The translations under genes were made by a program, and so were the position numbers. The notes under the pieces were generated by a model that made no database searches, had not been told where the DNA came from, and saw only the letters and a list, made by a program, of their open reading frames with translations. From NCBI RefSeq assembly GCF_040183065.1, contig NC_091132.1, forward strand, positions 87,434,606-87,498,605: a DNA stretch of 64,000 bases, written 5' to 3'. Shown here in pieces: positions 8,394-64,000 of this stretch. The first letter of the stretch is position 1; the number at the start of each line of letters is the position of its first letter. The stretch is from Periplaneta americana (Eukaryota > Arthropoda > Insecta > Blattodea > Blattidae).

Positions 8394-8534
8394 CTGTGAA
8401 ATTAATAAACATAATCAAAATTAGAATGGAAATAAATTCTTCTAAACATGATTATAATGTGATATAGTACTGATATTACTTATTTCATTGTGAGAGTAAA
8501 TAGCTTCCTTGTGAAGTGGTTATTAGAGGAGAAA

Positions 8535-8700
8535 AATTCGCTCTGGCGCCGAGAATCGAACCCGGGTCCTTGGTTCTAAGTACCAAGTGCTCTAACCACT
8601 GAGCTATGCCGAAGTTCAATCCACAGCACCAGATCGAATCCCCCTCCTCTAGTGTTTTTCCCTTTGTGAATTGTCACGTAGCCACATGAAGCCCTAAAGC
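8535..8700 (-). repeat. tRNA-headed repeat, family G
   Basis: The minus-strand head reads GGCATAGCTCAGTGGTTAGA, CTTGGTACTTAGAACCAAGG and GGGTTCGATTCTCGGCGCC. CATGAAGCCCTAAAGCAG at its right edge also occurs at 6395-6412, so the unit is repeated. The anticodon arm could pair (CTTGG/CCAAG), but with a 9-nt loop and no acceptor stem. Confidence 0.7.
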
Positions 8701-9430: not shown

Positions 9431-9826
9431 TAATTATTATTATTATTATTATTATCATCATCATTATTAAACTAGTCTAGTTCCTAGCTTGTCTTGCCTT
9501 AAGACAATCAGTAGCGTTATTCGAGGAAAAGAGTATGATTTACCATCATCATTACTGCTGAATATTGATATATACGATTTGCATTATTTAGGATACAACA
9601 TACGCAGCAACGCGATTAATGTTGAGCATGCCGAGTTTAGTGTAACATACTCCCCTCATCCTCCAAGCCAAATCAAATATTATTACGACATAACGAGTAA
9701 TATATAAATAATAATAATTACTACAATTATTCATTGTGATAAAGTACAATCGGTGTACCGAAGGTTTTAGTTTATGTTTTCATTAAATTGACATGTCATG
9801 AGTGACGACAGAAAACAGCAAATCAA

Positions 9827-10215
9827 AGTTTCTGGGTAGCTTAGCTGGTAGAGCATTAGTACATTTAACCAAAGGTCCTGGGTTCGATACCCGGCCCCAG
9901 AACAATTTTTCCTTCGAAATTATTCAAATCAACTTTACAGGGAGTTATACCTGAAAGCTTGATTTGCATAATACCCGTCACTGTTCGTCAACCAAAAACC
10001 ACAATTTAAGTCACACAGAGTTAGTGTGCACTCAATGTTGGTTGCTTGACGATTGTCAGCCCACTTTGAGGTCTGTGGATACAGAGGGAAAAATTGGATC
10101 GGTGTCTGGTAGAGTTCCCGGGTAGCTCAGTTGGTAGAGAATTGGTACGTTTAACCAAAGGTCCCGGGTTCGATACCCGGCCCTGGAACAATTTTTCCTT
10201 TGAAATTATTCAAAG
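9827..10215 (+). repeat. Direct tRNA-headed dimer (family C SINE)
   Basis: Two plus-strand heads (9832-9905: GGGTAGCTTAGCTGGTAGAG, GGGTTCGATACCCGG; 10115-10190: GGGTAGCTCAGTTGGTAGAG, GGGTTCGATACCCGG) are separated by tail and body sequence. A and B boxes of a Pol III promoter are intact in both. Body block GTGTGCACTCAATGTTGG is shared with 63775-63795. No cloverleaf acceptor pairing, so these are not tRNA genes. Confidence 0.85.
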
Positions 10216-10576
10216 GCATGTTATGTTTTGCGGAGTTGCTAATGACATTTGACACTTCCCTCATATGAACTGCAATTTTCTTCTTGGAGATACAGCATGT
10301 CTCAATTTAACACTGCATATATTTAATATCTGTATTATGATACAGAAAGAAATAAACTGATTTAGCTGTTGAAATCTGTGTGTTATGAATATTTAATTCT
10401 CTGGTTATAAATTTATTATAAAGTTGTAATGTTATAAAAATCACGAACTAACATTATTTATTTTTAGATACAATACAACATACAGTATTTAGTTAGATAT
10501 TAGTCTATAATTCGTATTTTTAAATTAAGAAATTTATCAAATCTTAGAGTAAAATGTAACTGTAATCATTATATAC

Positions 10577-11012: not shown

Positions 11013-11279
11013 CTGTAAACAGGAAATAATAAATCACCACCTGGTTCGATGAGTAAACAACATTTACTTCTAGACAAATTTCCAATCATTTTCTCATCTT
11101 TTTCTCGACCATTTAAAATTAATAAATTATCCATCTTGATTACACAACTTTAACACCACAACAACAACGCACATACACAACACATCCGATCACCCAACAC
11201 AACACAAACATGCTGCATTTCGAGCAATGGTACATAGACTACTCAACATACCAATGAGTCAACAAGACTACAAAGAAGA

Positions 11280-11604
11280 ATGGGTAGAATGGAGAAAAAT
11301 TCTCTCAGGCACCGGGACTCGAACCCGGGTTTTAAGCTCTACATGCTGATGTTTTATCCACTAAGCCACACCGGATTCTAGTTCCGATGCCGGATTGAAT
11401 CCTTCTCAGTTTAAGTTCTATCTCTCTGTTCTCCTTAAGGGCTGGCTTAGTGGATAAAGCGTCAGCACATAGAGCTGAAAACCCAGGTTCAAGTCTCAGT
11501 GCTAGAGAGAATTTTTCTCTGTTCTACCCATTTTTCACTATATGATAATACAGAATTCCTGCATGGAAATATCATATCATATGTACTTCGGTACATCACA
11601 GTAA
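11280..11604. repeat. Inverted tRNA-headed dimer (family D) inside PLE2
   Basis: Flanked by TACAAAGAAGA (11269-11279 and 11605-11615). The left half is a minus-strand head (B box complement at about 11315), the right half a plus-strand head (GGCTTAGTGGATAAAG, then GGTTCAAGTCTC), joined by about 60 bp. The tail CTTCGGTACATCACAG on the right matches family D. The pair interrupts the PLE2 reading frame and so is younger. Confidence 0.85.
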
Positions 11605-12365
11605 TACAAAGAAGAGTTAAACATAATCAAATACATAGCACAAGAAAATGGGTACAACCCTAACCTAATAGACAACATAATAAAAAATACAAAACATAAT
11701 TACAAAAAAAACATAGGAATAAAACACACTAACATACGAAAACAAAACAACACATACAAGATTGCATCCTCATTCACGAAATTAAATTACAACATCGCAT
11801 ACAATACTGTACACAAAATATGCTACAAAAGTATCTCAACACACAAACAACACAAACAAATACAATCTCATAGGTGTATACAAACTCACATGCAATAGCT
11901 GCAACAACTTCTACATAAGACAGACAGGCAGATCATTTCAAACACGTTACAAAGAACACATCACAGCCATAACCAAATCACAAAACACTTCCACATACGC
12001 AGAACATATCACAAACGCCAATCACACCTACAGAAACATAGACACAGACATGGAAATACTACATATCCAACCAAAAAACTAGAAACTGAATACACTAGAA
12101 CAATACGAAATAAAAAGACACACAAAAACACACCCACATCAAATCCTCAACACATGACTCAATTTCAGAACACACACACTATCTACCAAAAACCAGAAAC
12201 TGAACACACTAGAACAATACGAAATATACAGACACACAAAAACACAGCCACATCGAATCCTCAACACACGACTCAATTTCAGAACACACACACTATCTGA
12301 CTCCACACTACACTACACAAATGCATCCCCCATAGGAAACGGAATCAGAAGGCACAAAGATCACA

Positions 12366-17237: not shown

Positions 17238-17463
17238 GTCGCCCTGGGTGGCAGAGTTGATATAGCACTGGCCTTCTGTGCCCGAGTTTGAGGGTTCGAT
17301 CCTGGCCCGGGTCAATGGCATTTAAGTGTGCTTAAATGAGACAGGCTCATGTCACTAGATTTAGTGACATGTAAAAGAACTCCTGCGGGACAAACATTCT
17401 GGCACACCGGCAACGCTGATATAACCTCTGCAGTTGTGAGCGTCGTTAAATAAACAATTTTTT
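17238..17463 (+). repeat. tRNA-headed SINE, family F, with 14-bp TSD
   Basis: The TSD is TTAACAAAACTGCA (17224-17237 and 17464-17477). The head carries CCTGGGTGGCAGAGTTGA and GGGTTCGATCCTGGCCCG. The body reads ATTTAAGTGTGCTTAAATG, GGCACACCGGCAACGCTG and GAGCGTCGTTAAATAAAC. Confidence 0.9.
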
Positions 17464-21889: not shown

Positions 21890-22065
21890 GGGACCTTAAA
21901 TGGGGATGAGTTGTGTGGATATAAAGGGAAGAATTGTGACGGTGTCGTGTATGGTTCCTGGGGTAGCTCAGTCAATAGAGCATTCGTGTGCTATGCGAAA
22001 GATCCCAAGATTGATACCCGGCCCCGGAACAATTTTTCCCTTGAAGTTATTCAAGTGAATTGATA
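21890..22065 (+). repeat. tRNA-headed SINE, family C, single
   Basis: Body GTGTGGATATAAAGGGAAG precedes the head TTCCTGGGGTAGCTCAGTCA with B box GATTGATACCCGG and tail GGAACAATTTTTCCC. The B box carries substitutions (GATTGATACC), so the promoter may be weak. Confidence 0.75.
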
Positions 22066-22590: not shown

Positions 22591-22825
22591 TATCAGCCTA
22601 TATATTTTTAACAGAACACCCATACTCCAGGTTCAGCATATGCCACTGATCTTGATGCATAAGAATGTGTACCCTCAGTCTGCTGACAGCTGATCATAGG
22701 GGAGATGGAGTGTCAGCAGGTGAGCGATATGTGCCTGTGGCCAAGACAAGTGATGTGTGGCTGTGGCCAAGGCATTGCTGAATGCGGGCCCAGGTAAAAT
22801 GATGGCTCTGCAAACCATAGTGATA

Positions 22826-23243
22826 AACACGTGGTTTTAGTTAGTAGTCACTAATACTTCCAATATAATAATCAGTTGGATTTACCTGTAGGCCTACATC
22901 CTAATGCACTATTATTGCCTCTCTCACTTGTTACCAACATAAACACTCTAGAGGTCCAGGATGCAATACTAGGGAAATGGACCATTTCTATAGTAATTCG
23001 ACCTGGACTGTCCAATATTATGTTGGTAATTAGTAGAGGAGGAAGGGAAGTTCTTCAGAACCACCAAAGGAGGCACATTTTCCTTCCCCCCTCCCCTAAT
23101 TACCAACATAACATGCGAACGATCCAGGACGAATTATTGGTAACCAGTGGGGGGAGGGGGGTCTACAAATAAATATAGGCTACAGGTAAGTTCAAACTAT
23201 TTTTATGTTGAAAGTATTTGTAGCTGCTAACTAAAACCACGTT
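22826..23243. repeat. Foldback element with nested inverted repeats
   Basis: Outer arms AACACGTGGTTTTAGTTAG (22826-22844) and CTAACTAAAACCACGTT (23227-23243) are inverted. Next inside, TTACCTGTAGGCCTAC and TATAGGCTACAGGTAA are also inverted. At the centre are three copies of a TTACCAACATAA block in alternating orientation (from 22931, near 23020 and from 23098). No coding potential. It may be two nested MITEs. Confidence 0.65.
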
Positions 23244-24981
23244 TTTTTTTTCACTACATAGTTAATCTCATAGAAGCCGGCGCAAAAAATAATCATGTCT
23301 TTTTCAGTGTAGTTTTTATGGAGAATCACCATAGTGAGTAGGCCTAATAATACCGAGTGTTATACTGTGTTAGTGAATGAAATATTGTACAAAACGATAT
23401 GAATATGAAACTATAAAAACGGCATATGTCACCGTCGCGGATTCAGCTTTCTAACCTAACATTTAATGGTCTATTAATTCCAACGAGTTGGTTAATTCAA
23501 TATGCAGCTAATTAATACATGGAAACTTTTATAGACTATTTGCATAGCTGTTAGCTACTTGTATTTCTGCTACCTGTGTGACGTCTACAACAAACCACTT
23601 AAAACCAATTCCTATTCTGGACCACTATAGGCCTATGATTTTTTAATTTGGTTTGCACTACAAATTTATAATCTAAATAACTTAATATAGGTATTTATTC
23701 AAATAAAAAACATCCAAGAACATTGTTATATTAGTATGGCCTACGTAAAAATATAGGTTATGCAAGATAATCATTAATGCAAACTTGCAAATCACTCTGT
23801 TAAACTGGTAAAATGAAAAAATGTACCTACTTTACGTTAGTTATTTTAGATAATCAAAATGGAACATAACCTTGCGAAAATGGCAAATGATGAGGAATTT
23901 TACTCTTCCACCACCTCATCTTCAAGCGTTTTCACAACTTATTTTGTAACTTCTACACGTCTGAACACCTGCCGGAATGACATCGATAATCAACACGCAC
24001 ACACATTATAAGCCTATACACGAAACGCTTCTTCTTATTTGCACGGACAATGGTCAATTGGACACACCTATGTTGTAAAGTCCAATCGTTATCGTAATAA
24101 GGTCCAATCAATACACAGCAAATTGGCACTTGTCACGAACCAGTGAATATGCATTTGCATACAACCACACTACTGGTACTGTGATATATATAACTAAAGG
24201 AAATTACTGTGTAAATATGGAATAGACAGTATATTACGATACAAGGTTGGGAAGTCCTTTCTACAAAATCGAGGAAAAGTTTGAAAAACGAGCAGAGCGA
24301 GTTTTTCAATTTTCGGGATTTTATAATGCATTTCATAAACTTGTACTGTACAAAATTTTTCGCAGGACCATATTTTTATTGCAATTAAGCCTATACAATA
24401 ATATATTTTGTATTGAAAATTTAGAGCAATATTATTCCAAAGCCTTCACAAAAATATATTGTAATGGTAACTAAATAACAATAAGTGTACTGTAATGGGT
24501 CTATTTCAGTAATTTTAAGTTTTGAAAAATGCTTTCCCTAGTACCAAGTTTCTTTGTGGGAACTCTAACTTTCAAGGCCTAACAACAATAACTGTAAATA
24601 CAACAAAAAACACTATCGTGCAAGAAATACAATTACAGTAACTACTGGTACCACAATAAAAAATTTAAACACTTTAAGATTTTTTAAATACCTAATTACA
24701 TTTGAAGTTATAAAATCTTGAGAAGTGATCTGTTCTGTAAGATTATTATGTGCATATCTTTTAACTTTACTATTTTATATAATTTTTATATTATTCATGT
24801 TTCCTGTACCGTTCTTGTTTTGTATGGTACAGTATACCTTGTCTTTGGCAGTCACTTTTTAGTGAAAACTCAATAAAGTTATTCAGATTGAGTCAATATA
24901 AAGACTACTTTGAAGTAAAGTAAAGTAAAATGTGACAATAAGATCATTTTTAAGAAATCTTGTGAGTGTTACATGCGTCAT
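23244..24981. other. Intergenic DNA, nothing recognised
   Basis: AT-rich, no coding blocks, no repeat borders. The missing first PAF-AH exon should lie somewhere between 19151 and 34711, but no segment here was convincing. Confidence 0.4.
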
Positions 24982-26734: not shown

Positions 26735-26942
26735 GCACTAGAATGAGGTGGTGTGATCAGCACCACGCTCTGACCGCCTTTAACCCCCGGGAAAGACCCG
26801 GTACTCAATTTTATAGAAGGCTGAGTGAACCTCAGGGCCATTCTGAAAGTTTGGCAACGAGAAAAATCCCGTCACCCCTTGGGATCGACCCCCGGACCTT
26901 CCAGTCCATAGCCAGCTGCTCTACAAACTGAGCTACTTGGAC
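26735..26942 (-). repeat. tRNA-headed SINE, family B
   Basis: Minus-strand head AGTAGCTCAGTTTGTAGAGC and GGGGGTCGATCCCAAGGGGT, body GCCCTGAGGTTCACTCAGCC, and left end CCTCATTCTAGTGCTGAGGC. A second copy lies at 40428-40650. Confidence 0.8.
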
Positions 26943-27919: not shown

Positions 27920-28321
27920 TGTACCTATTAGAGATGAACAAAACTAACTGCCGCTCTCGCTCACTGTGTTCATTGCATTTGTCTTTCGAGTCTCGGCTCG
28001 TCATTCTCGTGCGCTTTGAGTCTCGCTCGTCATTCTCGAAATAGCATTTGGTCAGCGTGGAAAGATTTCGTAACTATGAATAACATACATCATTGAAATA
28101 AATAGCATAAATGTTTAAATGATACAAAAAGACAAAATAGAACAGTAGGCCTATCTTAGTTACCAAATGTTCTGTTTCTATTATATGATATTACCTATGG
28201 TTATATAAATAGAAAAAAAAAACAATTCTCAAATAAATTTGCATTTCTAAGAAACATAAAACATGACATTAGTATCTTTTTACTTGAGATTGCACACTTG
28301 ATCTTAAACATATGAAAAGAA

Positions 28322-29544
28322 TATATATTATTTTAATGTACCGAAGTACATATGATATTTCCATGCAGATATTCTGCGTCATCATATGATGAAAGAGTAA
28401 TGGAACAGAGAAAAATTCTCTCCAGCGCCGGGATTTGAACCCAGGTTTTCAACTCTATGTACTGATGCTTTATCCACTAAGCCACACTGGATACCCACCC
28501 CGGCGTCGGACAGAATCGTCTCAGTTTAAGTTCCAACTCTTGGGTTCCCTCTAGTGGCCGCCCTCTGCACTACATCATAGATGTATATGAACGTAGGACT
28601 GAAGTCCACACATGTGCTGAGGTGCACTCGTTATGAGTGACTAGTTGGCTGGGATCCGATGGAATAAGCGCCGTCTTAAATCACGAAGTGATTTACGCAT
28701 ATCATATATATTATTTTAATGTACCGAAGTACATATGATATTTCCATGCAGATATTCTGCATCATCATACGATGAAAGAGTAATGGAATGGAGAAAAATT
28801 CTCTCCGGCGCTGGGATTTGAACCTGGGTTTTCAGCTCTACGTGCTGATGCTTTATCCACTAAGCCACACCGGATACCCACCCTGGCGTCGAACAGAATT
28901 GTCTCAGTTTAAGTTCCAACTCTTGGGTTCCCTCTAGTGGCCGCCCTCTGCACTACGTCATAGATGTCTATGAACGTAGGACTGAAGTCCACACATGTGT
29001 TGAGGGCGGCCACTAGAGGGAACCCAAGCGTTGGAACTTAAACTGAGACGATTCTGTCTGATGCTGGGGTGGGTATCCGGTATGGCTTAGTGGATAAAGC
29101 ATCAGCACATACAGCTGAAAACCTGGGTTCAAATCCTGGTGCCGGAGAGAATTTTTCTCCGTTCCATTACACTTTCATCGTATGATGACGCAGAATATCT
29201 GCATGGAAATATCATATGTACTTCGGTACATTAAAATAATATATATGGATTTAAGACGGTGCTTATTCCGTCGGATCCTGGCCAACTAGTCACTCATAAC
29301 GAGTGCACCTCAGCACATGTGTGGACTTCAGTCCTATGTTCATAGACATCTATGACGTAGTGCAGAGGGCGGCCACTAGAGGGAACCCAAGAGTTGGAAC
29401 TTAAACCGAGACGATTCTGTCCGACGCCAGGATGGGTATCCGGTGTGGCTTAGGGGATAAAGCATCAGCACGTAGAGCTGAAAACCCAGGTTCAAATCCC
29501 GGCACCGAAGAGAATTTTTCTCCGTTCCATTACTCTTTCATCAT
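28322..29544. repeat. 1.22-kb palindromic tRNA-headed SINE array (family D) with single TSD
   Basis: A 12-bp repeat, ATATGAAAAGAA, flanks the block (28310-28321 and 29545-29556). Inside are four copies of one unit: two on the minus strand (tRNA-like parts about 28410-28495 and 28790-28880) and two on the plus strand (about 29075-29160 and 29440-29525), with the symmetry centre near 29000. Each head has an A box (TGGCTTAGTGGATAAAG) and B box (GGTTCAAATCC), and each has body motifs CACTAGAGGGAACCC and tail CTTCGGTACATTAAAATAAT. No internal TSDs were seen between units. Confidence 0.85.
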
Positions 29545-30990
29545 ATATGAAAAGAAAATTCCTAGCCTTTTAATAAGGGCCTAATTAAATAAAGACTGGG
29601 AACAGATTATTATACACTGAAAGGTAGAGATGTTTCATATAGGCTACTTGATTGTTTATACATATGAAGAGTCCACTGCAAGAATGATGGATGTCACTTT
29701 CTTGTAGGAAATGAACCAAGACTGTCAATGCATAGCTTAAGACATATAAAATGAACATAGAGAGTTATATGGCATTAACACTAATAGCCATTGTCCAGTA
29801 ATGATCGGAAAATCACAGTTAAGCTTTGAGCGCTAAGCATTTCAATCTTTCAATTGCTTCTCCTGAAAAATGTGTTCCAAATGACATCAATCATTCTTGC
29901 ATTGGACTCTACATATGTAACAGTTGCCAAAGTAGATAAAAGTTCGGTCTGGTATAAATAACTGTGGCGATTGAAGGCTGCTTTGGAATTTTGGGAGATG
30001 ATCAATATCGAGTCTCAGAAGACCCGGTAGTCTTTACGTCAAGGACGCGACATAATACAACATTGTCGTGCGGGTTTTCGGCTTTGCAGGCGCTGTTAGT
30101 CTCGCTTTTTCGATCGTTGTTCGTCTCTAGTACCCATATATCACTAAAGAAAACCTATATGCACATTATTAGATTATTATGCATTCTTAAAGAAATACTG
30201 CATTCTGAATAACACACTTCGTGTTATAAGAGTTGAATGATTCAGAATGGGTTAAGAATATGTCACACATGTATGATGTAGTTTGACGTTTATATGCTAG
30301 GAACCAACCAGTACCAAGACACCCCGTGTGTGGCCCTCATTTGACTGACACACCCAGCAGAATTAGAGAAACAAAGAATAAGGAATATATATTTTAAGAA
30401 ACATGGGAATATTTTACTCTGTATTCATTTGCAGTATATTTTTTACATTGATAAATGTGAAGACTGAAGGGCATGAATTAGAAAGGGTTATAGAGATAGA
30501 ACATAAAGGTCAATAAACTGTTACAGTCATTTTACAAGTGAAGACACAAGTTACCACGATGTCTACAGTGAAAATGTTATGGTTGACATTAGTTGTACAT
30601 ACGCGATACCAGTATCCCACCCCTGAGTGGTTACATATATACACAGACGGATCTCTCCTAGACAAAAATACAATGCTGGGGCAGGAATCTACAGCAATAT
30701 CTTCAGTTTTTATATCACACTGGGTCCATTAGCAACGCACTATGATGGAGAATTACAGGCAATTAACACAGCACTTCAACAACTCATGAGCCACAATAAC
30801 AAATTCACAAAAGTTGTGATACTCACGGATTCCAAGGCAGGACCACAAGCAATAAGATCACTACACCCTGAAAATTCTAATAAGAGAAATACACAACCTT
30901 GCAAAATTAATTCAAGCTTTACATAAGGAACTTGTAATCCAATGGATACCAGCACATTGCCAAATTGTAGGAAATGAAGCAGCTGACCTT

Positions 30991-31249: not shown

Positions 31250-31683
31250 TCCTAAATTATCCTTCCAGAATGCTAAAATCTGACTCAAACCCAAAGTTTA
31301 TCAAGCCTGCAGGACAAGACATTCTGAATATAGCGAGAACAAATCCTGGAGCATACTGCTGAAGGACAAATCTATCATTCCTGATCTACCCCGGAAGAAA
31401 TCTGTGGCACTGTTTCGCCTCACTACTGACCTCACTGCTTGGCCTCACACCTGCATAGGATTGGTATATTCTCTTCGCCACACTGTACTCTCTGCTTGGA
31501 CGTGAACTCTATCATGAATAAAGGCCACTTACTGCAGTGTCCAGCAATTACGAAGCATCTCAGCTTACAAGTTACTACTGGGACGCCCATAGGAGAATGG
31601 AGGAAATCCAAGTTGCATAAGCATTGGCAACAACAACAACAACACCAACAACAACATTAGTTGTAGAAACAAAGTATGATGTT

Positions 31684-31834
31684 GAATAATTTCGAGGGAA
31701 AAATTGTTCTGGGGCCGGGTATTGAACCCGGGACGTTTGGTTAAACGTACCAATGCTCTCGGCCCCGGAACAATTTTTCCCTCGAAATTATTCAAATCAA
31801 CTTTACAGGGAGTTATACCTGAGAGCTTGATTTG
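31684..31834. repeat. Compact tRNA-headed palindrome (family C) with TSD
   Basis: A 14-bp repeat, CAAAGTATGATGTT, flanks it (31670-31683 and 31835-31848). A minus-strand head (GGGTATTGAACCCGGGAC) sits between inverted arms of about 33 bp (AATAATTTCGAGGGAAAAAT and its complement near 31768-31796). The second head is reduced to GGCCCCGGAACAATTTTTCC. The tail ATCAACTTTACAGGGAG identifies family C. Confidence 0.85.
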
Positions 31835-31984
31835 CAAAGTATGATGTTCTTTTTAAATTATGAATTCTTTTCGGTACTGGTATAGTTTAATAGGAAAACA
31901 AAGAATATGAGCTACTTTATATGCATGGATTTAGCTTAAATGTTAAGCATCTACTGAAATTTTTTCTGCGAACAGACAACATAT

Positions 31985-32043: not shown

Positions 32044-34710
32044 GGCAAGCATTGAACATAGTGATCTGCTGAGTTCCCAAAACCACATTTAGGCCAGAGC
32101 TTTGCATGATAACATATATCGGTACTGGTATCGAAAAAATATTGATAACTTTGATACAGTATTTGGATAGTTAATTTTTATACAGTGAGAATGTTTTTTA
32201 TATATTTATCTCCAGTTTGAAGTCCTTTGTCAATATAGCTTAGGTTAGTATAAAACATGGTCCTTGCTAATGACAAAGCTACCAATGTCATTCTTGTCTA
32301 TCTTATTAAATTGTTTTTCTTTACCATATAAGCATCGTACTTTATGCACTATAGAATTGTTTCTTCTCATTCATCTTCATTTTTTTATCTATGTGTTGAT
32401 ATTATTAATCTTTGATCCTACAGAATTCTCTCCAGTGCGTAGAACTGGGGGCCCTGGGTTCGATCCCCAGTGCCGGAGCAAATTTTTCTCCGTTATTAAT
32501 TAATTTTTTAAATAAACATTAAACTCTTAATGAAAAAATTAGTTCGTGATTTATTAATTGCTCAAAATCACATAATCAAGAAGGGAATGGTCAATATATA
32601 TATTATTCCTAAAGCTGTCAATACAAACCTTCTTTGGAATGAGCTGAGGGAACAGTTTTAAGAAAAAATATTATTAGTCTATCTTATAAATTTTAAAGAA
32701 AATTGGTATGGTGTCATTAAAGTTACTAACAATTTTCATTTATATTTATACATTAGCAGTGATAACTATAACAATATCGACAAGATATAAATCTACTTTG
32801 TTATGTCAACAATGTGAGTAACGTTTTGAACGATTTACCAGCCCATTTGAAAACTAATTACTTAACCTTAGAATCACATTTACTATTCCATGTATTTCAA
32901 GGTAATTAATTATAAAGAACTACAAATTTTAATAGTCCTTATATAATAGAAATAGTGCTGATAGCACTGCTATGTGCCAGAGCTGTCATCAACTGAGAAG
33001 CACTTGCCATATTTAGCTATTCTTAGTAATACCCTGTTTAAGTGCTGATTTGTTTTAACTCAAGTGTTTTGTAAATTCCAAAAACAGCGGGCTTAAATTG
33101 TATATCGTTGCTAACTTTTTGTCATTTAGTATATTTAATACAGAAAACATATACATGGTCAGTTGCTATGTAAATTGACGTATAATGTACTATTTCGAAA
33201 TGTTTTCATTCATCATGTCTGGAGAATATATTATATAAATAATATATATACATACACACACTCCTTTAGCACTGTTTTGGTTAACACTTCACGTTCTATG
33301 AACATATCTTGAACACTAATCAGGGGATTACTGCACACTGATGGCACTAATGGCTTAAGTTAAATTAAAAAATAAAGAACCCAAAATATGAAACAAAATA
33401 CTACTATAACATAACAGTCTGTCACATTTTTTTTTTCAAGACTTGGCTGACTCATTTTTTAAACTAACACAACCACTGCATTCAACACTATGCATATACA
33501 TATCGACAACAAATGTTCTATTAACACTATAATATCAACAGGTCTCAAATTATATGTGTACATATAAAATGACATTTAAAACCTATAATATGTTTAACAA
33601 TATGTTATATATCTAGTGTGTTTGTAACACCTGTTCTAAAGTAACAAAGGACATTAGCTTCATAGGAAGACAGATACAAATCTTTGTATTGAGATTTCAA
33701 AAGAATATTGTTCTCCTGGATTTACATGTAATTAGCCTACTTTGATTTCGAAAATCTTTTCAGTGTTTCTGTATTAATCCGTAAAAAGTCTACAATATTT
33801 TTGGGTAAAAAGGGAAACTAAGTGACTAACCTAGAGATTATTAAAAATTCCGATAGCATGTTTATTGCCTGGAAAGTTTTTATTAATGTTAGCCTATGCT
33901 AACTGCTATACTCAAGAACTGGACAGTGTTGCATTTTATACATATTAATCTACATTCTTCCCACATTAATGTGCTAATTATAATCTTTTTTTCTGCAGTC
34001 TTAATACTGTATAAAGTCAATTTGTATTTGTTCCTAAAACCATCTCCAAAGTAATCTAAGTTCTTGACTATATATATTCAAAACTGGTTACTCACATTGT
34101 TGGATTTTGTGGATGATGAAATTGAATACTGTACTTAAAGTATGATACATATCTTTTTTTTACAAAAACACTCTATGGAAGACAACATGTATATATAACA
34201 TACCACTCAAATCTTGTGCAAATATAAAAGGTACAGTCAACTTGTTTACATTTCTCGGAATCACACATTCTTTCACATACACACACAGATTTACTTAATA
34301 GAACCAAATTCTCAGTTAAATATTAAAATTATATTTGACAAGGCATCACAAATGACACCTATGAAAATAAACATAAAGTATCAAAATATTTTATGCAAGT
34401 AATATTATATTAAAAGATACAAAGTAATAGCATAGTCACTCCCTAATTTTCACACTGTAATGATAGACCAACTGCAAAGACAGAGTTTTCATTGTTTTCA
34501 CTGCACTTTTGAACACTGTTAATGCCACCTATATTGGTCCAAACAGGTCCTAATAAAACTCGATTTTGGCAATCAGCCTAGTCGCGGTACTGTTGTACAC
34601 AGAATTGTAGTTAAAATATCCACATTAGGTCCATATCTTATAATAAAGTTGCTTGAGCATTTTAATGACCAGAATAAAGATCCTTGTCATCTTCATTGGT
34701 TCTTAAGATC
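32044..34710 (-). other. Probable 3' UTR and intergenic region of the uif-like gene
   Basis: This stretch follows the stop codon at 34711 and holds no recognisable coding sequence. It is AT-rich and mostly free of the SINE and LINE copies common elsewhere, apart from one SINE fragment near 32410-32500. That low repeat load would fit a transcribed 3' UTR followed by intergenic DNA. Several minus-strand AATAAA-type signals exist (for example around 33870-33890), but the true polyadenylation site cannot be chosen from sequence alone. Confidence 0.35.
32408..32506 (+). repeat. tRNA-headed SINE fragment
   Basis: GGGGGCCCTGGGTTCGATCC followed by CCAGTGCCGGAGCAAATTTT and TCTCCGTTATTAATTAATT. The flanks resemble family D tails (GGAG..ATTTTTCTCCGTT). 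Only the B-box half is present. Confidence 0.6.
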
Positions 34711-35158: not shown

Positions 35159-35482
35159 TTTTCTTTTATCCAATGCCACCAGGTTGTCTTTCGACATTTC
35201 TGGTCTTCTCTTCTGGCTGTGGCTTAATTGTAACCCACTTCTGAGGTTGGGGCGCCTGGAAGGCGGAGTTACATCACCCCGATGATGTGATAGGATGATT
35301 ATGATAATGTAGTGCCAGGAGAGGTCTTAAATCTAAACTTAACCTAAATTCCAGACCATGGACGAACATAGGAATAATCCCCTTTAAGGAAAAATTCCTG
35401 TGCTCTAACCGGGAATCGAACCCGGGACCACATGAACTATAGCCAGAAGCTCTGACCACTAGACCATGAGGCTGGTCATATA
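35159..35482 (-). repeat. tRNA-headed SINE, family E, with 14-bp TSD
   Basis: The TSD is TACATTCCAATATT (35145-35158 and 35483-35496). The minus-strand head has ATGGTCTAGTGGTCAGAGC and GGGTTCGATTCCCGGTTAG, then CACAGGAATTTTTCCTTAA. The body includes GGGTGATGTAACTCCGCC. The acceptor stem does not pair, so it is not a tRNA gene. Confidence 0.9.
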
Positions 35483-38513: not shown

Positions 38514-38652
38514 CTAAAATGTGGAAATAAAAGTATGATTTTGAAGTATACATTTGCAATATGATTAAAATGGTTGTAAAAATAAGAATTGCCAGTCCAG
38601 TGAACTTTACATGATGAAATTGGATTCTGTATGATAACTGTTGTTAGTTAAT

Positions 38653-39243
38653 ATAAATGACACTCGGGAGGAAATTAAACGCAGAATAAATATGGGAAAT
38701 GCGTGTTATTATTCGGTTGAGAAGCTTTTATCATCTAGTCTGCTGTCAAAAAATCTGAAAGTTAGAATTTATAAAACAGTTATATTACCGGTTATTCTGT
38801 ATGGTTGTGAAACTTGGACTCTCACTCTGAGAGAGGAACATAGGTTAAGGGTGTTTGAGAATAAGGTGCTTAGGAAAATATTTGGGGCTAAGCGGGATGA
38901 AGTTACAGGAGAATGGAGAAAGTTACACAACGCAGAACTGCACGCATTGTATTCTTCACCTGACATAATTAGGAACATTAAATCCAGACGTATGAGATGG
39001 GCAGGGCATGTAGCACGTATGGGCGAATCCAGAAATGCATATAGAGTGTTAGTTGGGAGACCGGAGGGAAAAAGACCTTTGGGGAGGCCGAGACGTAGAT
39101 GGGAGGATAATATTAAAATGGATTTGAGGGAGGTGGGATATGATGATAGAGACTGGATTAATCTTGCACAGGATAGGGACCGATGGCGGGCTTATGTGAG
39201 GGTGGCAATGAACCTTCGGATTCCTTAAAAGCCATTTGTAAGT
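38653..39243 (+). mobile_element. RTE-like non-LTR retrotransposon 3' end, copy 1
   Basis: Flanked by a perfect 17-bp TSD, AACTGTTGTTAGTTAAT (38636-38652 and 39244-39260), and therefore a complete 5'-truncated insertion. The open frame reads SVEKLLSSSLLSKNLKVRIY, YGCETWTLTLREEHRLRVFE, RRMRWAGHVARMGESRNAYR and GRPRRRWEDNIKMDL. This is the C-terminal part of an endonuclease-reverse transcriptase protein; the RT catalytic box is absent. The frame is still intact, suggesting young age. It ends just after the stop at AAGCCATTTGTAAG. Confidence 0.9.
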
Positions 39244-39444
39244 AACTGTTGTTAGTTAATTCTTTGATGCCAGTGGTTCTGATATGGAAATGTACAAAAA
39301 TAAAATTAGTTTAAAATAAGGAAAAAAGAAACTAAAAAAATGTCATTCACTTGGGGAGGAACAATCAGAATTTCGTTCTGGAACTTTTTTTTTTTTACAC
39401 AAAACTGTATTAGATTTGTTTTCGTTATTAATTATTCACTGTTA

Positions 39445-39986
39445 CTTACTTACTTACTTACTTACTGGCTTTTAAGGAACCCGGAGGTTCATTGCCGCCC
39501 TCACATAAGCCTGCCATTGGTCCCTATCCTGAGCAAGATTAATCCAGTCTCTACCATCATATCCTATCTCCCTCAAATCCATTTTAATATTATCTTCCCA
39601 TCTACGTCTCGGCCTCCCCAAAGGTCTTTTGCCCTCCGACCTCCCAACTAACACTCTATATGCATTTCTGGATTCGCCCATATGTGCTACATGTCCTGCC
39701 CATCTCAAACGTCTGGATTTTATGGTCCTAATTATGTCAGGTGAAGTATACAATGCGTGCAGCTCTGTGTTGTGTAACTTCCTCCATTCTCCTGTAACTT
39801 CATCCCTCTTAGCCCCAAATATTTTCCTAAGAACCTTATTCTCAAACACCCTTAATCTCTGTTCCTCTCTCAAAGTGAGAGTCCAAGTTTCACAACCATA
39901 CAGAACAACCGGTAATTTAACTGTTTTATAAATTCTAACTTTCAGATTTTTTGACAGAAGACTAGATGACAAAAGCTTCTCAACCG
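39445..39986 (-). mobile_element. RTE-like non-LTR retrotransposon 3' end, copy 2
   Basis: Flanked by a 15-bp TSD, AATTATTCACTGTTA (39430-39444 and 39987-40001). The minus-strand frame (177 codons) is nearly identical to copy 1 from SVEKLLSSSLLSKNLKVRIY onward. It ends in a (TTAC)n/(GTAA)n tail at 39444-39465. It lies 200 bp from copy 1 in opposite orientation. Confidence 0.9.
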
Positions 39987-40427
39987 AATTATTCACTGTT
40001 ATCATTACAAATTAGAAAATAAGTATCAACATATTCATCCAACACAACTGGTCAACCGTATGACAAAAGTTGTTCAATATCCATCTTCATTATTTGGTGT
40101 TAACTTCTTCCTGAACTTACGTAATCAGAATAACAAAATAAATAATACTGATATATATAAAATTAATTACAGAAAAATATCTTTCAATAAAGTTGTCTTT
40201 CTAATCTGTACAAAGTAAGAAAATAGTGACAGACAGTGAAGAAATATACTGAAAGTGAAATAAATTATTAATATACATTAAAAAATCTTCTCAAAGCATT
40301 GAATGTAAGCCTTAACTCAAAGAAAGTCTAAAGCATGCCGAACCAAAATGCACAAATTAATTAAAAAGGTATCCACTAAATACGCCATGAAGATGCTTGA
40401 GAGGCATGGAGGTAGAGCTCCATGACT

Positions 40428-49876: not shown

Positions 49877-50722
49877 TTATCCCGAGTTATCTCGTGCACT
49901 TTGATTCCAGCTCTGGTAGTTGTCCCACTTTGATTTTCTCCTGAACTAATTACCAACTTATGTTTTTTTATGGATTATTTTATGAGGTACAATACCAGTG
50001 CTTTATCAAGGCATTAAATGTTGCTTGTCGTGTGATAGACTCGAAAGCAGGGTATTACACACAGTGGCAGATTGCATTCCGGACAGTAGTATCTGCTCTT
50101 GTGTCGAATTTGATTGTATTTTGAGTCTCTCGCATGAAACACTGTCTGGTTGGTTGTTCTTCTTCAGAGTTCGTGGAATAACTTCTGGAGAATGTCTACC
50201 TGTAAGCCGAAGTGGGTTGGGCGATTTTCCTGGCCATCCTGCCTTGAGTGATAGGACATTCGGGGTGTATTTTTCGAAAATCTTACGAATTACCACCATT
50301 CGATAGTCCAAGGGTGTCTTCCTGCCTTCAGATATCGTATACAAAACGTAGGAATTCCACAAGGCCAACTCGAGAAGATGAAAGAAGATATTTTTATAAT
50401 ATCGCTTTCCACTATTTCGCGGGGCAGGATAAGCTGCCAAGTGCTGGTCTACTTTGTCGACTCCTCCCATTGAGTTGTTATAGTCGACCACCATTTTCGG
50501 CTTCAAATCATCCTTGATGACGACCATCTCAGCGCTGTGTATTGTGCTAAGAAGCACCACATCTTTTTTATCCTTCAACCTGAGGGTAATGTTCTTGTCC
50601 CTCTGGATGGAAACATATATATTCGGGATAATAATCCTTAGCAACGAAGATGGGACTCAAACGAGTTAACTTGGGTTAATAAATTTTGTCAGAAGTTAGC
50701 AACCCGAGTTAACTCGGGTTAA
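49877..50722 (-). mobile_element. piggyBac-like transposon with internal deletion
   Basis: The right end reads inward TTAACCCGAGTTAACTCGGG and the left end TTATCCCGAGTTATCTCGTG, so the TIRs begin CCCGAGTTA-x-CTCG and abut a TTAA target (mutated to TTAT on the left). The inner right end holds a second partial motif at about 50670-50685. The coding part is the C-terminal half of a piggyBac transposase only. At 846 bp it is far shorter than the usual 2-2.5 kb, indicating deletion of the N-terminal half. Confidence 0.75.
50006..50644 (-). pseudogene. piggyBac transposase C-terminal fragment
   Basis: An open minus-strand frame reads RLKDKKDVVLLSTIHSAEMV, KPKMVVDYNNSMGGVDKVDQ, YYKNIFFHLLELALWNSYVL and GRHSPEVIP. 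These are the conserved C-terminal blocks of the piggyBac DDE domain, including the third catalytic Asp region (YN-x-x-MGGVD). The first two catalytic Asp are absent. After GRHSPEVIP the frame loses the expected cysteine-rich zinc finger (C-x-x-C pairs), suggesting a frameshift. Other frames across this region are shadows. Confidence 0.85.
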
Positions 50723-50971
50723 TCAGGGAAGTGGTTAATCAAAGATACTTCGTACAATACACTTTTGGTTAAAGCAATAAGTATGCAGTTATATTTTCTT
50801 GTGAACTTATCACTCAGATTTAACTTTAAAGTGCATTGTTAGTTCCTTTCTTCCAAATGTGGTCCAATTATGGTACCAAGTCTTTATTTCTGGTGTATAT
50901 TTTTGGAATTTTTAGTGCATGTAATTCTGAACACTAATTATAAATATCACAAATATAACTTTAGTTCTTAC

Positions 50972-51283
50972 CGCAGATGTGCCCTTAGTGCTGGTGTTGG
51001 GTGGACAGGATATGCAAGTAGTTTGCTGTGGATCTGGTTGGTATGTGCCCTTCTTGCAAGGTATACAGCTGTTCTGCGTGCCATTCAAGAAGGTTCCAGG
51101 CTGACACACAGGCAAAGTACATTCCTCCACAGTTGCAGCACCAGGTCTGTGTGTAGTGCGGCCAGTTGGACAACCTTGACAAGCTGCTTGGACACCCATT
51201 GTTCTGTATGTTCCTCGTGGACATGGTTCACATTTACCCTCTACTCCCAATTGCCTTCCAGAACCACATTCATCTCGACATTC
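50972..51283 (-). CDS. uif: uif-like exon 5: two GCC2/GCC3 repeats
   Basis: 104 codons in phase 0 at both ends, with acceptor TTTTAAG and donor GTAAGAAC. Starting at [20 protein letters not shown], it holds one complete repeat ([19 protein letters not shown]) and a second ([20 protein letters not shown], then [16 protein letters not shown]). Twenty cysteines at regular spacing point to an extracellular disulfide-rich module. Confidence 0.9.
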
Positions 51284-51826: not shown

Positions 51827-52248
51827 ATAAAATATATATAAATTTCAATCATAAGACACATCTGTTTTGCAAATGTTTATTTGCTATATGAATATGGAAT
51901 ATATTAATGTTTTCGCCTTATTGGGCATCATCAGATATAATAAAATATGTAATCTGAACCTTGATCAAATTGAGCAAATAACAAATGAGCAATGTATTAT
52001 ACATGGTGTTGGATCTTCATGAGCTTTATGTATAAAAGTATAAATAAAATGAAGGATAATTAATTTCAATGTGATGTAAACTTTTAAAATTGAAATTGAA
52101 ATTGATTGTGTATACATATAACTCATGTTACAGTATGAATACAAATTAATCAATTAGAATTATACGATTTATCAATGATGTTAAAAAATTATGAATAAAG
52201 TGAATATATTAGCTTAAAAATTAAAATTCACATTGTTCGAAGAATGTC
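51827..52248 (-). repeat. PLE1 left pLTR, inverted copy
   Basis: The sequence is the reverse complement of 54157-54579 with scattered substitutions and small indels. It includes the hammerhead-like core on the minus strand (about 51897-51940). The inner junction lies at a TTCGAA palindrome, which could have primed a fold-back during integration (inference). Confidence 0.9.
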
Positions 52249-53276
52249 CAATTCAAGAAACCATACTCATTATTACAGAAAAACTACATAATTTACAAAT
52301 ACCAGAAACTAAAATTCAACAAATAATACGATTGTTAAATACCGTCACTTCCCAAAATTATTTCACATTTAATCAGAAAATATATAAACAAAACATCGGC
52401 CTAGCTATGGGCAACCCCCTATCAGGAACTCTTACCGAAATCTTCTTACAAAACATAGAAGATAACAAAATCAACGAAATTTTAAATAAACATAACATTA
52501 AATCATACTATAGGTATGTAGATGATACAATCATAATTTATGAAAATACGTCAACAGATAATTCCATTCTCGACTCATTTAATAAATTACACAAAAATCT
52601 AAAATTTACAGTTGAACATGAAATGAATAATTCTATACCATTTTTAGATCTAAAAATAATAAAACATAAATTTGAAGTGAGTTATGATATCTACAGAAAA
52701 CCAACACACACAACACATAGTATACCTGCAGATTCAACACATCCCCAAAACCAAAAACAAAGCATGTTTAATTACCTAACAAATAGATTAACACAATTAC
52801 CATTATCCAAAAACAAATACAAAAAAGAAGTGCAAAGAATATTAGACATCGCAAACGAAAATGGATACAGTAAAACTCTCATTCGGAAACTAATTCGGAA
52901 AAAAGAAAACAACATACAACGACAGACAGCCACGACCTTAGTAAGATCCAACAATAAAAAAACAAAATTTTGGTCAACACTCACCTACAACAAATACATA
53001 TCTAATAAATTAAAAAACTTTTCCAATAAAGAAAATATAAATATAGCATTTAAAACAAATAATAAATTAAATAACAATATCCATAATACAATAAACACTA
53101 AAGATAAATTAAATAGTAAAGGTATATATATGCTCAAATGTCACACATGCGAAAAGAAATACATAGGCCAGACCAAACGTAACATAAAAACAAGATATAA
53201 GGAACATGTCAATGACTTTAAGAACAATAGAGAAAAATCAAAATACGCGGCACAATTAATACAGGACACGAATTAG
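52233..53276 (+). pseudogene. Penelope reverse transcriptase and GIY-YIG endonuclease, truncated
   Basis: The open frame of about 347 codons begins inside the RT palm. It has QKIYKQNIGLAMGNPLSGTL (motif B), SYYRYVDDTIII (YVDD catalytic motif C) and NSIPFLDLKI. The linker NGYSKTLIRKLIRKKEN leads to GIYMLKCHTCEKKYIGQTKR followed by NIKTRYKEH, a GIY-YIG nuclease with the Penelope-type CxxC insert. The stop at 53276 follows a frameshift: the next frame continues GRQNTLSILKTYNNNNFINA and AEEFFIAYYHNKYKNIINEN to about 53431. The N-terminal RT is missing. Confidence 0.9.
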
Positions 53277-54156
53277 GCCGTCAGAACACATTAAGTATCC
53301 TAAAAACTTACAATAATAATAATTTCATAAATGCAGCTGAAGAATTTTTCATTGCATATTACCACAATAAATATAAAAATATAATTAATGAAAATTTATT
53401 AAACTTTAGAAATCCGCTTTACACAATTTAAAGTAGACCCATCCACATCACAAACGACCATGATACGCCGTTCAAATAGTTCCCTTTAAAATCACTGCGC
53501 CACTACACAGCTGAACATATACGATCACCCAGTCTTTAGTTCACTTCAAACTACCAACACACTTCTACAAACATCAAGACATATACATATGTAAGCAATC
53601 GAAAACCGTTATTAATATTATAACAAACTCTTAGTATTCCCAAATTTGCATTTGTTTCTTAATAATTACTTAATAATTCTCATATTTTTTCCCTCGTTCT
53701 TAAAACTGTTTAAACAGATTGAGATAAAATAGTAAAATTAACATTTTCTTATTTTTACAGAAATCATCTTCACATATACAGTCCCTGATAAACTTTGATT
53801 ACACACAGAATCTGTATGTTATTAAAATCAGATGAATATTTTAGATCTAAATGATCAATAATAACCACTATTTGTATCAATGTCAGATAACATTCAGTTC
53901 ACAAGCGAACGTATACGTAAGTAATCTTATAACAATTTATTACATCCATCTCTAAAATAAATAACTTTACATCTTCTCTATTTCGACTATTAATTAATGC
54001 TTATATCAAGTACAACTAATACGATTTACAACTTTGATTCCCCTCACCTTTGTTTTTCAGTACATGATTGAAATTCTACATGTATAATTACAACCAATCG
54101 ACAACATAAGATCCATCAGTCACAACACAACATCAATATTGTATATAGTACCCTAA

Positions 54157-54579
54157 GACATTCTTCGAACAATGTGAATTTTAATTTTGAAGCTAATATA
54201 TTCATTTTATTCATAATTTTTAACATCATTGATAAATCATATAATTCTAATTGATTAATTAGTATTCATACCGTAACATGAGTTATATGCATACACAATC
54301 CATTTCAATTTCAATTTTAAAAGTTTGCATCACATTGAAATTAATTATCCTTCACTTTATTTATACTTTTATACATAAAGCTCATGAAGATCCAACACCA
54401 TGTATAATACATTGCTCATTTGTTATTTGCTCAATTTGATCAAGGTTCAGATTACATATTTTATTATATCTGATGATGCCCAATAAGGCGAAAACGTTAA
54501 TATATTCCATATTCATATAGCAAATAAACATTTGCAAAACAGATGTGTCTTATGATTGAAATTTATATATATTTTATTA
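54157..54579 (+). repeat. PLE1 right pLTR
   Basis: The sense-orientation copy of the terminal repeat. It contains the hammerhead-like core at 54465-54505 and is followed by about 54 bp, rich in A, up to the TSD at 54634. Confidence 0.9.
54465..54505 (+). ncRNA. Hammerhead-ribozyme-like core in PLE1
   Basis: CTGATGA at 54470-54476 is followed by a 3-bp hairpin (GCC/GGC), then GAAA at 54490-54493, a very short stem III region, and TTA as the NUH site. TATAT before the core and ATATA after it can pair as stem I. The core is the hammerhead consensus CUGANGA..GAAA. The matching minus-strand copy lies at 51897-51940 with the core unchanged. Self-cleavage is untested, and the T after CTGATGA is an unusual bulge. 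Confidence 0.55.
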
Positions 54580-54976
54580 TATTACTAGGCATATCTGAAA
54601 ATACAAAAATGAATTGTAAAAAAAAAAAAAAATCAATCATTCGTTAGATTTAACATTGTACCATTTGTAAATTATATTATCTGCAATAATATTTATGGTT
54701 GAGGCTAAACTAGAAACAACAATGGACCTAAAATTGATCCCTTGAGAACTCCATGTTGAATATTTCTAAATTCTGAGTGAGTAACTTCGTAACTGTTTGG
54801 TATATTTATTTTTGTACTTTTTGTTTTCTATTTGACAAATAAGATATAAATTAACTGTGTCATCTCTAATATAATGAAGCTTTAATTTATCAATATATTA
54901 CATTATGGCACTTTAGCGAAATTACAAAATACTTTTTCTCCATATAATTTTAAGTTTGAAGTTCAATACAGTTGAC

Positions 54977-63629: not shown

Positions 63630-63950
63630 ATATGTAAAGCTGACTTGAATAATTTCAAGGGGAAAATTGTTCCAGGATCGGGTATCGAACCCAGGACCTT
63701 TGGCTGAGCGCTCCAACGCTCTACCTATTGAACTACCCAGGAAACAGAAAACCACAAATTTAATTCATACAGTAAGTGTGCACTCAATGTTGGGCTCTGA
63801 CAATCTGTCAATCCACTTGAAGTATGTGAATATAAGGGGAAAATTGAGTTGGAGTCTAGTATAGTTCCTGGGTAGCTCAGTAGGTAGAGCGTTAGGTCTC
63901 GGGTTCGATACCTGGCCCTGGAACAATTTTTCCCTTGAAATTATTCAACC
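63630..63950. repeat. Inverted tRNA-headed dimer (family C)
   Basis: A minus-strand head (63645-63752, B box complement GGGTATCGAACCC) and a plus-strand head (63865-63925, GGGTAGCTCAGTAGGTAGAG then GGGTTCGATACCTGG) are separated by a body block, GTAAGTGTGCACTCAATGTT. Both outer arms are AATAATTTCAAGGGGAAAAT-like. No clear TSD was found. Confidence 0.75.
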
Positions 63951-64000
63951 TTTATCTTATCCTAGTGACATAGTGTACTATTTATCGAACTGTTAGCAAC

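What the first reader, a model, noticed from the sequence alone, without database searches (positions are those of the whole stretch)
28322..29544. A 1.22-kb palindromic array of four tRNA-headed units with one 12-bp target duplication
Seen: two inverted pairs of the same tRNA-like unit, symmetric about ~29000, flanked by ATATGAAAAGAA and without TSDs between units. Known: ordinary SINEs insert as single units by LINE-mediated target-primed reverse transcription, usually giving one TSD per unit. Inference: either the whole palindrome inserted at once, or units grew inside one insertion by template switching. A transcript would form a long double-stranded RNA with four Pol III promoters and so could feed small-RNA pathways.
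Basis: partly seen in the sequence, partly recalled or inferred. Interest (0 to 1): 0.85.

Follow-up and report, generated by a model that had tools for sequence, protein, structure and literature searches.

The report
Palindromic four-copy SINE insertion
Four copies of a small tRNA-containing jumping element sit as a large palindrome that was most likely put in by one insertion event primed from both ends of the cut DNA, and several other elements nearby have a similar layout, so this may be how small elements often insert in this (probably insect) genome.

Summary
The palindrome is real. Units U1 and U2 (minus strand) and U3 and U4 (plus strand) meet head-to-head at ~29003, 3' tails pointing outward. 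One 12-bp duplication flanks the array, and none that convinces lies between units. The title is wrong on one point: the tRNA lies mid-unit. The arms are not mirror copies: tails, unit-unit junctions and variant sites differ. A similar layout recurs in the window: inverted SINE pairs at 11.3 and 31.7 kb (11- and 14-bp duplications), at 63.6 kb (no duplication found, both tails short), and a Penelope-like retroelement at 51.8-54.6 kb (13 bp). In the four with duplications one arm has a full tail; the other is cut short where 1-2 nt match the target. Two LINE-like copies in the window are simple. Best reading: one insertion in which both target ends primed reverse transcription of separate, head-to-tail linked RNAs, joined at the centre by 4-nt microhomology. 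It resembles L1 twin priming, but here the arms share whole units; published Penelope insertions have this layout. Which enzyme did it is open. The Pol III double-stranded-RNA idea is not supported. The host genome could not be searched.

The parts
28310..28321 (.). left copy of the 12-bp target site duplication ATATGAAAAGAA
28322..28703 (-). U1: longest unit (382 nt): leader ~210 nt, tRNA-Tyr-like 28420-28491, full AT-rich 3' tail at the outer edge
28704..29005 (-). U2: 5'-truncated unit with full 3' tail abutting the 5' end of U1; tRNA-like 28803-28874
29002..29005 (.). centre of the palindrome: U2/U3 junction, GAGG present in both templates (4-nt microhomology)
   Evidence: read from the printed sequences
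29002..29247 (+). U3: 5'-truncated unit with full 3' tail; tRNA-like 29076-29147
29248..29546 (+). U4: leader shorter than in U1 by ~21 nt, tRNA-like 29439-29510, 3' tail cut short at CATCATAT
29545..29556 (.). right copy of the target site duplication; overlaps the end of U4 by 2 nt (AT microhomology)
11280..11604 (.). second head-to-head pair of the same family (left arm minus, cut tail; right arm plus, full tail), duplication TACAAAGAAGA at 11269-11279 and 11605-11615
31684..31834 (.). head-to-head pair of a tRNA-Asn-like SINE family (left arm minus, cut tail; right arm plus, full tail), duplication CAAAGTATGATGTT at 31670-31683 and 31835-31848
63646..63948 (.). head-to-head pair of the tRNA-Asn-like family, both tails short; no target duplication found (best exact repeat 5 nt)
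51827..54633 (+). Penelope-like element with the same layout: inverted 3'-end arm 51827-52247 (97.4% over 421 nt to the right end, last ~54 nt missing), forward 5'-truncated element from ~52248 with full tail; duplication CAATCATTCGTTA at 51814-51826 and 54634-54646

Best explanation
The array is one retrotransposition product made by two-ended target-primed reverse transcription. An endonuclease cut the two strands of the target 12 nt apart. The top-strand 3' end primed cDNA synthesis at the 3' end of one SINE RNA (left arm, full tail of U1). The bottom-strand 3' end primed inside the tail of another SINE RNA, helped by 2 nt of microhomology (right arm, cut tail of U4). Each cDNA ran through one unit into a second, head-to-tail linked unit (by template jumping, or because the RNA was already a tandem dimer). 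The two cDNA ends were then joined at the centre through a 4-nt match. Filling the staggered cut gave the single 12-bp duplication. Shown: the anatomy, the single duplication, the microhomologies, the unlike arms and the recurrence at other sites of the window. Inferred: the order of steps, the use of separate RNA molecules, and the enzyme.
For: One outer 12-bp duplication, frequency about 0.0001 under two nulls, none convincing at the internal boundaries. Both outer ends are 3' tails, one full and one cut. The same full-tail plus cut-tail layout with one duplication occurs at 11.3 kb (11 bp), 31.7 kb (14 bp) and in a Penelope-like element (13 bp). Microhomology at the cut-tail junction is 2, 1, 2 and 2 nt in these four cases (read by eye). 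Four of 9 SINE-like loci in the window (tandem pair at 9.8-10.2 kb counted as one; two weak profile matches left out) are inverted pairs or arrays, and those 4 of 4 are head-to-head. Published L1 5'-inversions show microhomology at the internally primed end (PMC2912911, passages). Endonuclease-bearing Penelope insertions can carry an inverted terminal copy shorter than the direct ones, one duplication, and an extra tail on only one side (PMC3846280, passages).
Against: In classical twin priming the two cDNAs are primed on one RNA; in L1 the overlap between them, where present, has a median of 12 nt (PMC12016303, section 8). Here the stretch shared by the arms is 34 nt to over 500 nt, so extra templates must be assumed. 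The 63.6-kb pair has no detectable duplication and no full tail. Nine loci in one 64-kb window is a small, selected sample: 4 of 9 is not significantly above an L1-like 20% rate (P 0.086). No other copy from the host genome could be examined (genome search did not complete).
Confidence: 0.72

Rival explanations
1. A single tandem (multimeric) SINE RNA underwent ordinary LINE twin priming: the 3' units became one arm and the 5' units, primed internally, the inverted arm.
For: Explains the two-unit arms and one duplication with a single RNA. Head-to-tail copies exist in the window (9826-9973 followed by 9993-10234). Twin priming is common for L1 (18-22%; PMC12016303).
Against: The two head-to-tail junctions differ by ~21 nt, so a uniform tandem repeat is not the template. 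The 11.3-kb and 31.7-kb pairs have one unit or part of one per arm and would each need a dimer RNA too. Twin priming of LINE-mobilised SINEs is very rare where measured (1 of 5936 germline Alu; one Alu case in PMC2912911).
Confidence: 0.13
2. The palindrome exists as a ready-made mobile unit (palindromic master copy or foldback element) and was inserted whole.
Against: The two ends are unlike; the right end stops inside the tail at microhomology to the target. Other inverted arrays in the window have different centres and different numbers of units. The tRNA promoters point outward, so they would not transcribe such a unit.
Confidence: 0.06
3. Post-insertion local inverted duplication, or independent insertions of single units next to each other.
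For: Units differ by 5-11%, as separate copies might. In the window two copies of a LINE-like repeat do lie as an independent tail-to-tail pair, each with its own terminal direct repeat (18 and 15 bp).
Against: No convincing internal duplications; no stretch of non-element DNA seen between units; the arms are not copies of each other; the same geometry recurs at three further loci with duplications; among the SINE pairs found in the window none is tail-to-tail.
Confidence: 0.05
4. Self-primed (snap-back) second-strand synthesis: the first cDNA folded back and copied itself, giving the palindrome.
For: Self-priming has been proposed for Penelope inverted repeats (PMC3846280 discussion passage). 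Of five columns with a two-versus-two split, one supports the mirror pairs U1-U4 and U2-U3.
Against: The mirror arms have different ends and different internal junctions. Four of the five informative columns (two of them adjacent) group U1 with U3 and U2 with U4; all five lie at CpG-type sites, so this is weak.
Confidence: 0.04

Closest known systems
Endonuclease-bearing Penelope-like element insertions with direct and inverted pseudo-LTRs (Adineta vaga Pen families, PMC3846280, passages)
   Same: Head-to-head inverted terminal copy, inverted copy shorter than the direct one, extra 3' tail on only one side, one short target duplication (8-10 bp in the passages seen; some copies have none), partial tandems. 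A Penelope-like copy in this window shows the layout.
   Different: The array has no listed ORF of 110 aa or more, contains tRNA sequences, and U1 shows no BLAST match to the Penelope copy in the window.
5'-inverted L1 insertions made by twin priming (PMC12016303 passages and section 8; PMC2912911 passages)
   Same: Two oppositely oriented cDNAs, one from the 3' end and one primed internally with microhomology, single duplication.
   Different: L1 cDNAs overlap little when they overlap (median 12 nt); here the arms share whole units and each holds two units. Such inversions are very rare for Alu (1 of 5936).
tRNA-derived SINEs of Blattodea (Sbg1-Sbg9 of Blattella germanica, PMC9191728 passages and section 8 part 1; Talua-Talud of a termite, named there)
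   Same: tRNA promoter with A and B boxes, short length, target duplications of 10-15 bp reported for Sbg copies; a dimeric member (Sbg9) is known.
   Different: Sbg elements start 11 bp upstream of the A box; here a leader of ~210 nt precedes the tRNA's A box. The part that I read does not mention inverted composite insertions.
Metazoan non-LTR retrozymes (PMC7229834 passages)
   Same: Short non-coding units found as tandem copies; a dependence on Penelope-like elements has been suggested (PMC8969392 passage).
   Different: No hammerhead ribozyme in the array among Rfam matches at E up to 10.

Membership tests
tRNA-derived SINE | tRNA-related region with A and B boxes | tested here: met
   tRNA models 48.7-50.7 bits in all four units; A and B boxes 11/11 in U1-U4
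tRNA-derived SINE | tRNA forms the 5' head, transcription starting about 11 nt before the A box | tested here: not met
   tRNA A box at nt 220 of U1 and 199 of U4; the leader is shared by U1, U2 and U4 and in part by U3. The leader holds another 11/11 A-box match (nt 132 of U1, also in U2 and U4) without its own B box at the threshold used
tRNA-derived SINE | no internal Pol III stop signal before the 3' end | tested here: not met
   TTTTT begins 15 nt after the B box in U1-U4; effect on transcription not tested
tRNA-derived SINE | 3' end shared with an autonomous partner element | tested here: inconclusive
   BLAST of U1 against the window (E up to 1e-3) finds no match in the LINE-like or Penelope-like copies; other partners in the genome could not be searched
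Twin-primed (5'-inverted) retrotransposition | one target duplication around two oppositely oriented cDNAs | tested here: met
Twin-primed (5'-inverted) retrotransposition | inverted cDNA primed internally with microhomology to the target | tested here: met
   2 nt here; 1-2 nt at three further loci (read)
Twin-primed (5'-inverted) retrotransposition | the two cDNAs come from one RNA with little overlap | tested here: not met
   the right arm aligns to the left over 545 of its 548 nt
Penelope-like insertion | inverted terminal copy lacking the tail, single short target duplication | tested here: met
   for the array; layout from PMC3846280 passages
Penelope-like insertion | encodes TERT-like RT with GIY-YIG endonuclease, or shares the terminal sequence of such an element | tested here: not met
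   no ORF of 110 aa or more in the array; no BLAST match of U1 to 51.8-54.6 kb; other Penelope families of the host could not be searched
Metazoan retrozyme | hammerhead ribozyme in each unit | tested here: not met
   no hammerhead among 21 Rfam matches at E up to 10

The most novel reading that the evidence does not exclude
In this genome tRNA-containing SINE-like elements are mobilised by Penelope-like (GIY-YIG endonuclease, TERT-related RT) machinery rather than by a LINE. Their insertions therefore take the Penelope form, head-to-head inverted and tandem copies inside one duplication, as a routine outcome. That would be a SINE class with a non-LINE partner.
Probability: 0.27. Interest if true: 0.75.

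Novelty: new variant of a known kind. Interest (0 to 1): 0.5.

Why it matters
SINEs are generally taken to insert one unit at a time through LINE enzymes, and inverted insertions are almost absent for human Alu (1 of 5936; PMC12016303). If two-ended priming is common here, it explains how inverted SINE pairs (sources of hairpin RNA and instability) can arise in one step, and it makes testable whether Penelope-like elements can mobilise tRNA SINEs. It also warns that inverted SINE pairs need not be independent insertions.

Tried and rejected
Tried without result: other copies of the two SINE families in public collections. Viral contigs gave 0 matches to three patterns and genome contigs 0 to two patterns; these collections hold viruses and prokaryotes, so this says little. 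The host genome was asked for ten times with the same request and never answered. A protein search with a host exon-like ORF (50912-51367) gave 29 hits, none with an organism name.

Considered and rejected: hammerhead-type retrozyme (no hammerhead in the array; the Penelope-like copy has sub-threshold hammerhead HH9 matches in both arms, 22.5 and 20.4 bits against a gathering score of 52). The microRNA-precursor matches at the centre (mir-3914, MIR5284) are below their gathering scores and reflect the palindrome. Two copies of a LINE-like repeat at 38.6-40.0 kb looked like another inverted pair, but they are tail-to-tail with their own 18- and 15-bp terminal repeats (no null computed for these), so independent. 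The label RTE that I give them is recalled from the look of the protein and tail; Pfam found no family in the one ORF tested. An inverted pair at 22825-22899 and 23173-23246 has no tRNA or SINE-profile match and was not used in counts. Two weak matches of the tRNA-Asn profile alone (17243-17311, E 0.0042; 26881-26936, E 0.0025) were left out of the nine loci.

Literature: ten searches (some listings capped). In these listings I saw no title or abstract start that reports routine head-to-head SINE insertions or SINEs mobilised by Penelope-like elements. The library is open-access only. I saw passages of six papers (PMC9191728, PMC12016303, PMC2912911, PMC7229834, PMC3846280, PMC8969392) and, of the first two, one named section (for PMC9191728 its first part only).

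Full report
What is there. The region 28322-29546 holds four copies of one element: U1 (28322-28703) and U2 (28704-29005) on the minus strand, U3 (29002-29247) and U4 (29248-29546) on the plus strand. Each holds a tRNA-Tyr-like sequence that ARAGORN and Rfam accept (48.7-50.7 bits). The exact repeat ATATGAAAAGAA flanks the whole (28310-28321, 29545-29556). Against GC-matched random window pairs an exact match this long occurred 3 times in 20,000, and with frequency 0.0001 in another null. Over the nine other pairs of boundaries the longest direct repeats are 2-7 nt; the 7-mer ATATATG (frequency 0.016, not corrected for ten comparisons) is AT-rich tail sequence.

Corrections. The tRNA does not head the unit. 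U1 has about 210 nt before the tRNA and about 100 nt after it; the tRNA's A box starts at nt 220. The leader is shared between units and, in part, with the related copy at 11.3 kb, so it belongs to the element. It holds another 11/11 A-box match (nt 132 of U1; also in U2 and U4) but no B box of its own at the threshold used. A TTTTT run begins 15 nt after the B box in U1-U4, and a run of four or more T follows the tRNA part in all 15 unit copies that I extracted from the window. In Blattella SINEs the element starts 11 bp before the A box (PMC9191728, section 8 part 1). So the tRNA promoter as usually understood would not make the full unit; how the full RNA is made is unknown.

The arms are not mirror copies. 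U1 ends in the complete tail, U4 stops about 62 nt earlier; the U1|U2 junction has about 21 nt that the U3|U4 junction lacks. Pairwise identities are U1-U2 94.0% (300 columns), U1-U3 93.1% (247), U1-U4 93.0% (299), U2-U3 91.9% (248), U2-U4 95.0% (238), U3-U4 88.6% (185). Of five columns split two against two (185 columns hold all four units), four, two of them adjacent, group U1+U3 against U2+U4 and one groups the mirror pairs; all are CpG-type sites, so this is weak. The ends and junctions are the stronger evidence that neither arm was copied from the other.

Recurrence in the window. A self-BLAST and profile searches give nine SINE-like loci if the tandem pair at 9826-10234 is counted once (about 8514-8655, 9826-10234, 11273-11608, 21891-22061, 28322-29551, 31675-31841, 32433-32504, 35383-35466, 63634-63959; E below 1e-5 with the combined profile; two weaker matches of the tRNA-Asn profile alone, E 0.0042 and 0.0025, left out). 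Four of the nine are inverted, and all four are head-to-head: 11.3 kb (duplication TACAAAGAAGA), 28.3 kb, 31.7 kb (CAAAGTATGATGTT, a different tRNA-Asn-like family) and 63.6 kb (both tails short, no duplication found; best exact repeat 5 nt). The nulls for the 11- and 14-nt repeats were 2 and 0 of 20,000. For the loci at 8.5, 9.8-10.2 and 21.9 kb a search for exact repeats of 8 nt or more found only one 9-nt repeat, for the tandem pair, which does not abut the copy at its left end; 32.4 and 35.4 kb were not tested.

A fifth case is a Penelope-like element. The ORF 52218-53273 has 115 homologues at E up to 0.001, of which 13 list PF01541 (GIY-YIG; the name is recalled). The best one is from Periplaneta americana at 51% identity, and the only solved structures matched are telomerase RTs (3 sequences, E 0.0009). 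The window ORF itself gave only a weak RVT_1 match in Pfam (28.3 bits, cut-off 29.6) and no GIY-YIG match at E up to 10; that its C-terminus looks like GIY-YIG is my reading of the letters. Alignment to the Periplaneta homologue starts at ORF residue 6, with clear similarity from about residue 11, which is where the inverted arm ends. The inverted arm matches the right end of the element at 97.4% over 421 nt and lacks the last ~54 nt with the poly(A); the whole has a 13-bp duplication (null 0 of 20,000). In contrast, two copies of a LINE-like repeat at 38.6-40.0 kb (RTE-like by recall; no Pfam family in the ORF tested) are simple copies with their own 18- and 15-bp terminal repeats, lying tail-to-tail.

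In the four cases with a duplication, one outer end is a full tail and the other a tail cut short. At the cut end the element and the duplication share 2 nt (28.3 kb), 1 nt (11.3 kb), 2 nt (31.7 kb) and 2 nt (Penelope-like), read by eye from the sequences. At the centre of the array the two templates share GAGG (29002-29005); at 31.7 kb I read no shared base at the centre.

Mechanism. These marks are those of reverse transcription primed from both 3' ends of a staggered cut. L1 5'-inversions have one end primed at the RNA's 3' end and one internally with microhomology, and are explained by twin priming (PMC2912911 passages; PMC12016303 passages and section 8). There, however, the overlap of the two cDNAs has a median of 12 nt; here the right arm aligns to the left over 545 of its 548 nt, and at the other loci the shared stretch is 34 nt (31.7 kb), 89 nt (11.3 kb), 98 nt (63.6 kb) and 421 nt (Penelope-like). 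So at least two templates, or a multimeric RNA, are needed, and each arm of the array also holds a head-to-tail join. Published Penelope insertions match better: an inverted terminal copy 37 bp shorter than the direct ones, a tail on only one side, 8-10 bp duplications in the cases quoted, partial tandems, and head-to-head as the most frequently observed arrangement (PMC3846280 passages). This suggests, but does not show, that the SINE-like elements were inserted by Penelope-type machinery. Against it: U1 shares no BLAST-detectable sequence with this Penelope copy; in the published case of an unrelated gene moved in trans, Penelope terminal repeats flanked it and were taken to be the signal, and none was found here; and duplications of 10-15 bp are also reported for Blattella SINEs, two of which (Sbg8, Sbg9) share sequence with an RTE retrotransposon.

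How unusual is it? Germline Alu twin priming was seen in 1 of 5936 insertions, L1 in 18-22% (PMC12016303). Four of nine is far above the Alu rate (binomial P about 1e-13) but not significantly above an L1-like 20% (P 0.086). The window came to me because it held such an array, so these figures are biased upward.

The dsRNA idea. The four tRNA promoters face outward from the centre, so Pol III products of the arms would have the same sense and would not cross the palindrome. The long hairpin (-1010.7 kcal/mol predicted) would need transcription from outside. No expression data were available.

Host. The window is from an animal, probably an insect: the best homologue of the Penelope-like ORF is from a cockroach. 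The species is not identified here.

Noticed in passing
window 51827-54633: Penelope-like retroelement, 5'-truncated, with an inverted 421-nt 3'-end arm and 13-bp duplication; sub-threshold hammerhead HH9 matches in both arms.
   Followed up: partly
window 38635-39260 and 39430-40001: Two copies of a LINE-like repeat (RTE-like by recall) lying tail-to-tail, each with its own terminal direct repeat (18 and 15 bp); they serve as simple-insertion controls.
   Followed up: partly
window 22825-23246: Imperfect inverted repeat (75 nt, 80%) with further complementary sequence outside it by eye, perhaps a foldback DNA element.
   Followed up: no
window 59689-60384 and 50006-50653: Transposase remnants: Transposase_1 and DDE_3 in the first (mariner-type by recall), DDE_Tnp_1_7 in the second (piggyBac-type by recall).
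   Followed up: no
window 4348-5823: Reverse transcriptase (RVT_1, 46.3 bits) and a weak RNase H match in adjacent open frames, likely a LINE remnant.
   Followed up: no
window 50912-51367: Ephrin_rec_like repeats in an open frame (83 bits), likely an exon of a host gene; 29 hits, best identity 95% over half the query, none with an organism name.
   Followed up: partly
window 9826-10234: Two tRNA-Asn-like SINE copies head-to-tail with about 20 nt between them; no clear target duplication.
   Followed up: partly
15 SINE unit copies at 8.5, 9.8-10.2, 11.3, 21.9, 28.3-29.5, 31.7, 32.4 and 63.6 kb: A run of four or more T after the tRNA-like part in all 15 extracted copies (14 of 15 with five or more), which is odd for Pol III-transcribed elements.
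   Followed up: partly
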